This document shows positions 42,901 through 48,900 of a stretch of 64,000 bases of DNA, piece by piece. Numbering within the stretch: the first letter of the stretch is position 1; each line of letters begins with the position of its first letter. Source of the DNA: Cololabis saira. Its lineage: Eukaryota > Chordata > Actinopteri > Beloniformes > Belonidae. The stretch spans positions 14,673,517 through 14,737,516 of the forward strand of contig NC_084587.1 of NCBI RefSeq assembly GCF_033807715.1. Reading direction: 5' to 3'. The notes below the pieces were generated by a model, which did no database searches, was not told the DNA's origin, and worked only from the letters and a program-made list of their open reading frames with translations. The translations under genes and the position numbers were made by a program.

Positions 42901-45900
42901 TAAAAATATCGGCTCCATGTCAAATTAGCTTTATGTAACAATTTTATTAAACTATAAAACCACAGAAATCCTGGTTATTTACTGTTTTGTTTGTACTTTA
43001 GAACTCCAATTTGTATATTCAATTTTTGTTAAATCAAAACATTTTATTTGTGAATAAACTGAATTCATACAAATCAAAGTCTTTGACTATTTTTCATTTA
43101 ACAGACCTGTTCAACATCAAACGGGGAAAAAGGTGCTGCAGCTGTAAAATACATTATTCCATGGTGTTTGCCTTTTTAAGCAACTCAGATGTTTTGAAAC
43201 CAAACCAACTACATCGTTCCTGTTCAATGTGCTCTCTGGAGTTTGCATGTCCTACAATTTAACCACTTTGTCAAAGGACATAAGCATGGATGAGTGCAGG
43301 CTAAGGATGGGCGATATTTTACCGTTCACGATAAACCGTCAAAAAAATCCCCCACGATAAGAATTTCTCATCTCGTGGTAAAAACGATAAATTCCCGTTG
43401 ATGATGTTTTTGTGTGAAGCTGATTTATGGTTCTGTGTTAAATCCACGCAGAAGGAAGGAAGGAAGGAAGGAAGGAAGGAAGGAAGGAAGGAAGGAAGGA
43501 AGGAAGGAAGGAAGGAAGGAAGGAAGGAAGGAAGGAAGGAAGGAGGAAATGAGCCTGAAAGAAAGACAGAAAGAAATAAAGAATGAAATGAGCCTGAAAA
43601 AAAAAGAATGAAATGAGCCTGAAAAAAAAGAAAGAAAGAAAGAAATTATGCAAAAAGAAAGAAAGAAAGAAATGAGCAAGAAAGAAAGAAAGAAAGAAAT
43701 GAGCAAGAAAGAAAGAAAGAAAGAAATGAGCAAGAAAGAAAGAAAGAAAGAAATGAGCAAGAAAGAAAGAAAGAAAGAAAGAAAGAAAGAAAGAAAGAAA
43801 GAAAGAAAGAAAGAAAGAAAGAAAGAAAGAAAGAAAGAAAGAAAGAAAGAAAGAAAGAAAGAAAGAAAGAAAGAAAGAAAGAAATGTATTGGTATTTTTT
43901 TTTTATCGTCATTTTTATCGTTATCGGGATAAATGCCAGAAATTATCGTGATACATTTTTTAATCCATACCGCCCATCCCTAGTGCAGGCTGACTTTCAC
44001 TTTCTGTGTGAAAAACGTATAAAACAACTTGGTTTACAACTTGTTCGGTTATACAACCCCCCTCCGATTATAATGTTATTTTAGTTTTACAACAGTATTG
44101 AGGAACAGGAAGTGAGTGGGCTAACCTGAGCCTCTCCTCCGGTTTGCAGGTGGAGTTGGTGGAGGAGGAGGAGAAAGAGGGGGGGGCTGGATGTTCTTGA
44201 TCTTCTTGGGCCGCCCCACCCGCCCGTTGTTCTTGCCCTTCCTGACGTACAGCAGGGTCGGTGGAGGGATCAGGGCCGGCACCGGGGCCGGCACGTCGGG
44301 CTTCTCTTTCATATGCTCCCCTTCAGACTCTCCCTCGGAGAAGGAGTCTGCAGAGTTTCCTGACATCACTGGAGACAGAAGGACAGAAGCATCTGGATTT
44401 GAACTTTGAAAGCACAGAGAAGCAATGCCACTCCAGCACAGCAGAAACAATCCTCCGTCTCACCGTTAGGGATGGGCCGTATGGACTAAAAAATGTATCA
44501 CGGCAAATTCTGGCATTTATCCCAATAGCGATAAAGATGACGATAAAAAAATACCAATTCAACTCCACCTTTGTAACTATAAATCTATCACCAGATTCAG
44601 TCTTTGGAGCCCCCAAAACACTGCTCTAAAAGAATACTAAATGCTAATAAATTACACCAAATAAATTGAATTGATAAAAACCAATTAAATGAGTCCACCT
44701 GTACTGCAAAACTGTAACGACTCCTCGCTCTCAGATCCGCCATGTTTGTTACACAAACACGTCATCAACTCCTTCCTTCCTTCCTTCCTTCCTTCCTTCC
44801 TTCCTTCCTTCCTTCCTTCCTTCCTTCCTTCCTTCCTTGCTTCCTTCCTTCCTTCCTTCCTTCCTTCCTTCCTTCCTTTTCTGGCTCCCTTCTTTCCTTC
44901 CTTTCTTTCTTTCTTTTCTGGCTCCCTTCCTTCCTTCCTTCCTTCCTTTCTTTTCTGGCTCCCTTCCTTCCTTCCTTCCTTTCTTTTCTGGCTCCCTTCC
45001 TTCCTTTCTTTTCTGGCTCCCTTCCTCCCTTCCTTCCTTCCTTCCTTCCTTCCTTCCTTCCTTCCTTCCTTCCTTCCTTCCTTCCTTCCTTCCTTCCTTC
45101 CTTCCTTCCTTTCTTTTCTGGCTCCCTTCCTTCCTCCCTTTCTTTCTTTTCTGGCTCCCTTCCTTCCTTCCTTCCTTCCTTCCTTCCTTCCTTTCTTTCT
45201 TTCTTTTCTGGCTCCCTTCCTTCCTTCCTTCCTTTCTTTCTTTCTTTTCTGGCTCCCTTCCTTCCTCCCTTTCTTTCTTTTCTGGCTCCCTTCCTTCCTT
45301 CCTTCCTTCCTTTCTTTCTTTTCTGGCTCCCTCCCTTCCCTCCTTCCTTCCTTCCTTTCTTTTTCTGGCTCCCTTCCTTCCTTCCTTCCTTTCTTTTCTG
45401 GGTCCCTTTCTTCCTTCCGTCCTTCCTTCCTTCCTTCCTTCTCTGGCTCCCTTCCTTCCTTCCTACCTTCCTTTCTTTCTTTTCTGGCTCCCTTCCTTCC
45501 TTCCTTCCTTCCTTCCTTCCTTCCTTCCTTCCTTCCTTCCTTCCTTCCTTCCTTCCTTCCTTCCTTCCTTCCTTCCTTCCTTCCTTCCTTCCTTCCTTCC
45601 TTCTCTGGCTTCCTTCCTTCCTTTCTTTCAATCTTTCTTTCTTTTCTGGCTCCCTCCTTCCTTCCTTCCTTCCTTTCTTTCTTTTCTGGCTCCCTCCTTC
45701 CTTCCTTCCTTCCTTTCTTTCTTTTCTGGCTCCCTCCCTTCCCTCCTTCCTTCCTTCCTTTCTTTTTCTGGCTCCCTTCCTTCCTTCCTTCCTTTCTTTT
45801 CTGGGTCCCTTTCTTCCTTCCGTCCTTCCTTCCTTCCTTCCTTCTCTGGCTCCCTTCCTTCCTACCTTCCTTTCTTTCTTTTCTGGCTCCCTTCCTTCCT

Positions 45901-48900
45901 TCCTTCCTTCCTTCCTTCCTTCCTTCCTTCCTTCCTTCCTTCCTTCCTTCCTTCCTTCCTTCCTTCCTTCCTTCCTTCCTTCCTTCCTTCCTTCCTTCCT
46001 TCCTGCACACGTACGTTGTGCGTCGATTTAAAGCTGAACCATAAATCATTTTTACACAAAAACGTCATCAACGGGAATTTATCGTTTTTACCGCGAGATG
46101 ACAAATTCTTACCGTGGGGAACTTTTTTGACGGTATATCGTGAACGGTAAAATATCACCCATTCCTACTCACCGTCCAGTTCCAGACAGATGTGGTTCAG
46201 GCTCATTCCTCGGAACAGCACTCCGTCTCTCTCCCCGCACAGCACGACCCGGCCCACGCGGCCCATCAGGCCGGGGTCTTGGCCGATCCCGGCGCAGTTC
46301 TGCGTCACGTGGTACTCCCGTTCCAGGAACTGCTCCAGCCTCTCCACGGCGCTGCTGCCGGGCTGCCCGGGCAGTCCGGGCTCCTCGCCCTCTCCCAGGA
46401 GCAGCAGCTGGGTCAGGATGGCCACCTGGCGGCGAACCCTGGTCTGGGTCAGGGCGCGGGGGTTGCGGGTCCCGCTGGAACGGGCCAGGCTGCGGAGGAG
46501 GTCGGTGCCCCGCAGCGGGGTGGCGGGCGAGTGGTAAGGCCGGGCGAACACGTACGGGTTGGCGGGGTCGACGCCGACGTCCTGCCGCGTCTGCAGGAGA
46601 AGCTCCAGACACGGCTCGCAGTGAGGCGGGAGGATGAGCGGCTGGACGCGTCCGCGTTTCCCCTGAACCCCGACGCGGGGCAGGTGCGGGAGAACCATCC
46701 GCTCGAAGGGGGACAGGGAGGCCTCCAGGGGGGTGAGAGCCGGGGGAGCCCCGGGCGGGACGGGGACGGGGCACTGAGGAGTCACGCGGGAGCGGTACTC
46801 TGCGATCAACAGCTTGGAGACCTCGCACTCCCGCCGCCGGTTGTACAGGATGAGCAGCGCCAGGCTGGAGTGGCACAGGAGCCGCCAGGCTTCGGCGGAC
46901 TGCAGCTGCCGGGACAGAGACAGGAAGGCCGAGTGCTGCAGCCGCCGCAGGTACAGCACCAGGGAGGACAGGGACGAGAGCAGGGGCAGCATCCCGTGTC
47001 GCCCCGAACTACGGGCAGGAAAAACAGATGAGAGAGAAAGAAACATTGAGAATGTTTTCAAATTCAGAGGTTTGGGTAAAAAAAACTGCTAACATACTAT
47101 CGGGAACAGATTTAGACGTAAAGTTATTAGCTGCAGGGTGACAGAAAATCTATTGTCGAGGTTTATTACAATTTATATTCAGGTTTTAGCCCGACACAAA
47201 ACTAAATAATCAAATTAAGCACAAATGACTTAACCTTTGTACTGTCTTCGGGTCAAAATGACCTAATTCTCCTGTTCCTTCTTTCCTCCTGCTCTCTCCT
47301 TCCTTCTCCCTTCCTCTTTTCTCCCTTCCTTCCTTATTTCCTTGTTTTCGTCCTTCCTTCCTTCCGTCCTCCCTCCCTTCCTTCGTTTCATTCTTCCTTC
47401 CTTTTGTCCAGGTGGCGCCTCAAGGAGCGGAAGGAAGGAAGGAAGGAAGGAAGGAAGGAAGGAAGGAAGGAAGGAAGGAAGGAAGGAAGGAAGGAACCTT
47501 CTTTCCTTGTTTTCTCCCTTCCTTCCTTCCTTCCTTCTTTCCTTGTTTTCTCCCTTCCTTCCTCCTTTCCTTGTTTTCATCCTTCCTTCCTTCCTTCCTT
47601 CCTTTTGTCCAGGTGGCGGCCCAAGGAGCGGAAGGAAGGAAGGAAGGAAGGAAGGAAGGAAGGAAGGAAGGAAGGAAGGAAGGAAGGAAGGAAGGAAGGA
47701 AGGAAGGAAGGAAGGATCCTTCTTTCCTTGTTTTCTCCCTTCCTTCCTCCTTTCCTTGTTTTCATCCTTCCTTCCTTCCTTCCTTCCTTTTGTCCAGGTG
47801 GCGGCCCAAGGAGCGGAAGGAAGGAAGGAAGGAAGGAAGGAAGGAAGGAAGGAAGGAAGGAAGGAAGGAAGGAAGGAAGGATCCTTCCTTCCTTCTTTTC
47901 TCCCTTCCTTCATTCCTTCCTTCCTTCTTTCCTCCCTTCTTTCTTTCCTCCCTTCCTTCCTTCCTTCTTCCCTTCTTTTCATTCTTCTTTCCTCCCTTCT
48001 TTCTTTCCTCCCTTTTTCTCTTCCTCCCTTTTTCTCTTCCTCCTTCCTTGACCCGAAGACAGCACAAGGGTTAATTATTGGGTGCAAACTGATAAGTAAA
48101 TAAGAAAAGCTGAAAGCTACAAGTTACAAGTTACCTGAGAAGCTCTTTTTCCTTGTCTTCTGTTCCACTGTCATCTTCCACTTCCATCAGTCCATTCTCC
48201 TCCTCGTCTTCCACCTCCTCCTCTTCCTCTTTGGGCGGCTCCCTCTCTTTGGCTGCTTTGCTACTGAAGGGCTGAGGGCACACCAGCTCCATGTGCTCCT
48301 CCTCTTTGGGCCTCTTCACCTCCACCACCTCCACATCTTCATCCTCATTCTCCTCTTCCTCCGCCTGTCTCTCCTTCTTTATTCTCCTCGCCGCTCCCTT
48401 CTTGGACTGCGGCGCGGTGACGGGCGGCGGGCTCCTCTTCAGGACGGACACCGGCACGGCGCTCTGGGCTCGGGGAGGGGTCAGCGCCGGCGGCGTGGGC
48501 GTCCTCCCGGAGGAAGCCGGGGATTGGCCGGCTGCCGTGAGAGTGGGCGGAGACATGGACAGGTCCTGGACTACGCTCTGCGGGGAATCCGAATTGCGGC
48601 TTTGTCCTCTGACGTGGGAAAACTTGGCGGGCGGCTGCTGGGCGAGCGCCGCGGCCGGGCCGGTGCTCGGGACGTGCAGGCGGGGCATCTGCGTGTAGCG
48701 CTCGACCAGGGCGGAGCACACCTCGGGCTGGTGGGCGTGGTGTTTGTCCAGGTGGCGGCCCAGGGAGCGGAAGTGCCGCCCGCAGTGCTCGCAGGTTTGC
48801 CGCATGGCGTCGATGGAAACGCCGCCCTTTGAGGCGCTTCCCGGCGATCCGGCGTCCAGAGGAGCCGGAGGTTTGAACACGGGCTGCTTCGACGGGGAAG

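What the first reader, a model, noticed from the sequence alone, without database searches (positions are those of the whole stretch)
44459..46175. Transposon insertion duplicated a splice donor and expanded a 95-bp intron
The MITE copy C (44467-46167) is flanked by perfect 8-bp copies of CTCACCGT. On the minus strand the copy at 46175-46168 is ACG|GTGAG, the last three exon bases plus the donor of the exon 46173-47008. The identical ACGGTGAG lies at the other end, 1.7 kb into the intron. Removing the MITE and one duplication gives an ancestral intron of 95 bp (44369-44463) starting GTGAGA. The MITE now supplies the +6 base, making GTGAGT. So two equal donors flank the element; use of the distal one would add the MITE, a 1.2-kb (CCTT)n array included, to the mRNA. 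The insertion appears to have been tolerated because target duplication regenerated the splice site.
Basis: seen in the sequence. Interest (0 to 1): 0.82.

Follow-up and report, generated by a model that had tools for sequence, protein, structure and literature searches.

The report
Transposon inserted exactly at splice donor
In a bony-fish gene a small cut-and-paste transposon has landed five bases into a short intron, copying the splice signal so that it sits on both sides of the insert; the copy next to the exon is probably still the one used, so this looks like a tidy but ordinary case of a tolerated insertion.

Summary
On the minus strand the element 46167-44467 (1701 bp, of which 1235 bp is a (GGAA)n-type array) lies between two perfect copies of ACGGTGAG, the last three exon and first five intron bases of a splice donor. 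Two sister copies nearby (40101-40759, 43302-43982) also have perfect 8-bp duplications, so this is a non-autonomous hAT-like insertion. The gene is an ortholog of fish si:dkey-117m1.4; in 120 of the 120 proteins fetched (of 302 hits) the two flanking exons' products are joined directly. Taking out the element and one duplication leaves a 95-bp GT-AG intron. Two corrections. The donors are not equal: the exon-proximal one, completed by the element's own T and A at +6 and +7, pairs better with U1 (-11.0 against -8.3 kcal/mol) and is best of 52 GT sites. And use of the distal donor, or retention, meets a stop at once: the element's first three bases are an in-frame TAG. Most likely the proximal donor is used and the gene works. 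Orthologous introns and RNA reads could not be examined. Ordinary in kind, unusually clean.

The parts
46173..47008 (-). Exon of the si:dkey-117m1.4 ortholog upstream of the insertion (ends ...LELD + G)
   Evidence: Open frame, AG/GT borders; orthologs
46168..46175 (-). Exon-proximal target-site duplication ACG|GTGAG; donor at 46172
   Evidence: best U1 pairing of 52 GT in the intron
44467..46167 (-). Non-autonomous hAT-like element, copy C, TAGGAATGGG...CCCATCCCTA
   Evidence: sister copies A and B
44770..46004 (-). (GGAA)n-type array inside copy C, 305 units by Tandem Repeats Finder, 79% matches
46165..46167 (-). First three bases of the element, TAG, an in-frame stop if the distal donor is used or the intron is kept
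44459..44466 (-). Distal target-site duplication ACG|GTGAG; donor at 44463
   Evidence: fourth of 52 GT by U1 pairing
44369..44458 (-). Rest of the original intron up to the acceptor CAG
   Evidence: 5 + 90 = 95 bp after removal of element and one duplication
44126..44368 (-). Next exon (VMSGNSADSF...)
   Evidence: direct junction in 120 of 120 fetched orthologs
43302..43982 (+). Sister element copy B, 681 bp, 8-bp duplication GTGCAGGC, in the following intron
40101..40759 (-). Sister element copy A, 659 bp, 8-bp duplication ATTGAAGC, in the following intron

Best explanation
A non-autonomous hAT-like transposon inserted between intron bases +5 and +6 of a short (95 bp) intron. Its 8-bp target duplication happens to be the donor core (-3 to +5), so the core now stands on both sides of the element. 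The element's terminal T and A stand at +6 and +7 and fit the U1 consensus better than the original A and C did, so the exon-proximal donor became stronger, and the spliceosome most likely still joins 46173 to 44368, removing the element within a 1804-nt intron. The distal donor is a relic that, if used, gives an immediate stop. Shown: duplication, element family in the window, frame, stop, pairing energies, direct exon junction in other fish proteins. Inferred: order of events, which donor is used, that the intron was short before.
For: Perfect 8-bp duplication at the exact element ends in 3 of 3 copies; shared element sequence at 90-91% between A and C; flanks join to a 95-bp GT-AG intron; direct junction in 120 of 120 fetched orthologs; proximal donor is best of 52 GT in the intron, and only 7 of 3552 minus-strand GT sites of the window (itself among them) reach its value; distal use or retention stops at once.
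Against: No RNA reads and no orthologous genomic sequence were available, so donor use and ancestral intron length are untested. U1 pairing energy is only part of donor choice. The intron also holds two GTAGG sites in the array (-9.2) and a copy-C-specific GTAAG at 46112 (-8.2) that could compete.
Confidence: 0.88

Rival explanations
1. Both donors are used: the locus makes a second, truncated or decay-prone mRNA through the distal donor, which tunes gene output (a poison isoform).
For: The distal donor is intact, 8 of 8 bases, and is fourth of 52 GT sites by U1 pairing; distal use and retention both meet the in-frame TAG; the array is purine-rich.
Against: The proximal donor is stronger by 2.7 kcal/mol and next to the exon. 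Survival of the distal copy says nothing: with about 6% private changes in copy C (15 of 233 aligned columns), 16 duplication bases would stay unchanged by chance about one time in three (my arithmetic).
Confidence: 0.07
2. The transposon created the intron, as Introners do.
For: The donor lies in the target duplication, as in some Introner families (PMC9860276, passages seen).
Against: The acceptor and the 90 bases before it lie outside the element; without the element the 95 bases still have GT-AG borders, are not a multiple of three and, read by eye from the empty site, run into a stop (TGA) at the start of the next exon; 120 of 120 fetched orthologs have no coding sequence inserted there.
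Confidence: 0.02
3. The intron was long before and shrank around the element, so the 95-bp figure is not ancestral.
For: No orthologous intron was seen.
Against: The duplication fixes the insertion point, and short introns are usual in teleosts (recalled). I saw nothing in the sequence that asks for a later deletion, but did not test for one.
Confidence: 0.08

Closest known systems
Introners with target-site-derived splice sites (PMC9860276, passages seen)
   Same: DNA transposon, target duplication that holds a splice donor, element removed by splicing
   Different: Here the intron existed already and supplies its own acceptor and donor; no intron was gained, and the family is not shown to do this repeatedly
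Maize Ds (hAT) insertions that are spliced out of, or change splicing of, host genes (recalled, no call)
   Same: hAT-type element with 8-bp duplication; splicing removes it from the mRNA
   Different: The Ds cases I recall are mutant alleles, mostly in exons; this is an insertion on the donor itself, present in a fish assembly
Non-autonomous hAT elements of fish (recalled, no call)
   Same: 8-bp duplication in 3 of 3 copies and related ends (TAGGG, TAAGG or TAGGA at one end, CCCTA at the other)
   Different: Long tetranucleotide arrays inside 3 of 3 copies

Membership tests
hAT superfamily, non-autonomous | 8-bp target-site duplication | tested here: met
   3 of 3 copies
hAT superfamily, non-autonomous | Short terminal inverted repeats | tested here: met
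   Copy A ends TAGGGATGGGCGATAT / TAGGGATGGGCGGTAT, 15 of 16 by eye; copy C 12 of 16 (ends printed)
hAT superfamily, non-autonomous | Mobilised by a hAT transposase | not tested
   No genome of this fish could be searched; no transposase search was made in the window
hAT superfamily, non-autonomous | Ac-type target preference nTnnnnAn (recalled) | tested here: inconclusive
   Each of the 3 targets fits one of the two fixed bases (read)
MITE | Short, several similar copies | tested here: met
   466 bp without the array (1701 - 1235); 659 and 681 bp in A and B with their arrays; 3 copies in the window
MITE | No coding capacity | not tested
   No ORF or family search was made on the element itself
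Introner | Insertion generates a new intron | tested here: not met
   Acceptor and rest of the intron lie outside the element; direct exon junction in 120 of 120 fetched orthologs

The most novel reading that the evidence does not exclude
The duplicated donor is a working switch: the distal donor, helped by the 1.2-kb purine-rich array acting as a splicing enhancer, is used in some tissues and yields an mRNA that stops at the element's own TAG, so that an insertion with its duplication made a ready poison isoform in one step. More generally, elements that begin TA at both ends are pre-fitted to land at +5/+6 of GTRAG donors in either orientation, completing +6 T and +7 A.
Probability: 0.05. 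Interest if true: 0.6.

Novelty: new member of a known kind. Interest (0 to 1): 0.3.

Why it matters
It is a clean natural example of how a staggered-cut insertion on a splice site can be harmless: the duplication keeps the donor core beside the exon and the transposon's end completes it. It gives a simple, countable prediction (hAT elements with TA at their ends should survive at +5/+6 of GTRAG donors more often than at neighbouring offsets) that can be tested across fish genomes. By itself it is one insertion in one gene with no shown effect.

Tried and rejected
Intron gain by the element: rejected, see rivals. A nested twin intron whose inner removal rebuilds the donor ([D1,2] stwintrons, PMC12403724, of which I saw the listing and the start of the abstract): not fitting, because the distal donor is preceded by CG, not AG. 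Exon creation from the element's 3' end: of the AG sites in 44760-44464, the 6 with at least 60% pyrimidine in the 20 bases upstream were read on to the distal donor, and 6 of 6 give a stop. Pfam scan of the two flanking exons alone found nothing at E 0.001; the 956-residue partial model gave SET, E 2.5e-6, over its cut-off, and three weaker families under theirs. Rfam: 0 matches at gathering score in the window. One 23-base pattern of the element end in viral contigs: 0 matches, which says little about fish DNA. Paper searches that ran. Three of them (12, 26, 35) held no paper, probably because the phrases were narrow; one search listed 20 of 29. In the titles and abstract starts listed by the others I saw none that describes a donor doubled by a target duplication in an existing intron, but full texts were not read (passages of PMC9860276 only), and the older maize work is, as far as I know, mostly outside the library. 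So no claim is made that such a case is not in print.

A claim that selection keeps the distal copy was considered and dropped: its survival is expected by chance about one time in three.

Full report
What is there. The minus strand of the window carries the end of a multi-exon gene: exons 54771-54442 (its start not settled), 52982-52908, 49267-48135, 47008-46173, 44368-44126 and 39979-39726 join to one open frame of 956 residues to the stop. A protein search with residues 500-956 gave 302 hits; the best 120 were listed and fetched. The 118 that bear a source's name are from fish; several are called si:dkey-117m1.4, many 'serine/arginine repetitive matrix protein 1', and the nearest is Xenentodon cancila, 94% over the whole part searched. 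So the window is from a percomorph-like fish, perhaps near the needlefishes (inference). Pfam finds the end of a SET domain.

The insertion. Between exons 47008-46173 and 44368-44126 lies an 1804-nt intron. It begins, exon bases first, ACG|GTGAG, followed directly by TAGGAATGGG..., and at the far end of the 1701-base element ...CCCATCCCTA is followed by ACGGTGAG again. Two sister elements, 659 and 681 bp, sit in the next intron, one in each orientation, each between perfect 8-bp repeats. The three agree at 84-91% in the parts that were aligned, and each holds a tetranucleotide array. Eight-base duplications and such ends are those of hAT elements (family knowledge, recalled). Copy C is 466 bp plus a 1235-bp array.

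The intron without it. With the element and one duplication taken out, the flanks give a 95-bp intron, GTGAGACGG...TCTCCAG. In 120 of 120 fetched orthologs ICLELD is followed directly by the product of the next exon: V in 114, M with the V absent in 6. One search lists only UniRef as source for those six, so I take it as a difference between annotation pipelines (inference). This shows that no coding sequence lies at the site in other fish; it shows neither that they have the intron nor how long it is, which I could not reach.

Which donor. Base pairing with the U1 end was computed for every GT in the intron: the proximal donor is first of 52 (-11.0 kcal/mol), two GTAGG sites in the array follow (-9.2), then the distal donor (-8.3) and a GTAAG at 46112 (-8.2), where copies A and B read GATAAG. 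Over the whole minus strand of the window 0.2% of 3552 GT sites reach the value of the proximal donor and 0.8% that of the distal one. The proximal donor also outscores the gene's other four modelled donors (-6.8 to -8.0), and so does the distal one, by less. The gain over the original comes from the element: its T and A stand at +6 and +7. So the donors are unequal, and the proximal one, beside the exon, should win. This is a pairing estimate, not a measurement.

What the distal donor would do. The intron is in phase 1. Reading on from the exon gives Leu-Asp-Gly-Glu-stop, and the stop is the element's first three bases. Use of the distal donor or retention therefore truncates the protein before the C-terminal part coded by the last two exons, and the mRNA would be expected to decay (established knowledge).

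Age and selection. Copy C has 15 private differences in 233 aligned columns, A 7 and B 15 (the 3' alignment is gappy near the arrays), which bounds from above the change since insertion. At that rate both duplications would stay perfect about one time in three (my arithmetic), so their identity is no sign of use.

Verdict. The event is a normal product of staggered-cut transposition falling by chance on a donor; with many elements and many donors per genome such hits are to be expected now and then (inference, not computed). Recruitment of a splice site from a target duplication is known from Introners (PMC9860276, passages). I rate it a neat new example of a known kind.

Noticed in passing
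47403-47819 (three copies in the intron 47009-48134): Three copies of a 31-bp piece of the gene's own CEHCGRHFRSLGRHLDKHH-coding exon (48743-48773; identity 97, 97 and 90%) sit inside (GGAA)n/(CCTT)n arrays of the intron after that exon, as if an exon piece had been copied into the array and then multiplied with it.
   Followed up: partly
44125-44100: By one exact pattern 15 of the 120 fetched orthologs carry four extra residues (xPKS) after GSG, as from a second donor 12 nt downstream (53 match the plain form, the rest neither); here that stretch reads GTTAGCCCACTCACTT, with an in-frame TAG and no GT at that place, so the alternative form seems lost.
   Followed up: partly
46112: Copy C reads GGTAAG where A and B read GATAAG, which makes a further donor-like site ACG|GTAAGAAT 60 bases into the intron.
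   Followed up: partly
49908-51063: Two direct repeats of about 310 bp, 95.5% alike, about 850 bp apart start to start, in the intron before the large exon.
   Followed up: partly
49172-49222: (CTG)n array coding for a run of glutamines within the large exon.
   Followed up: no
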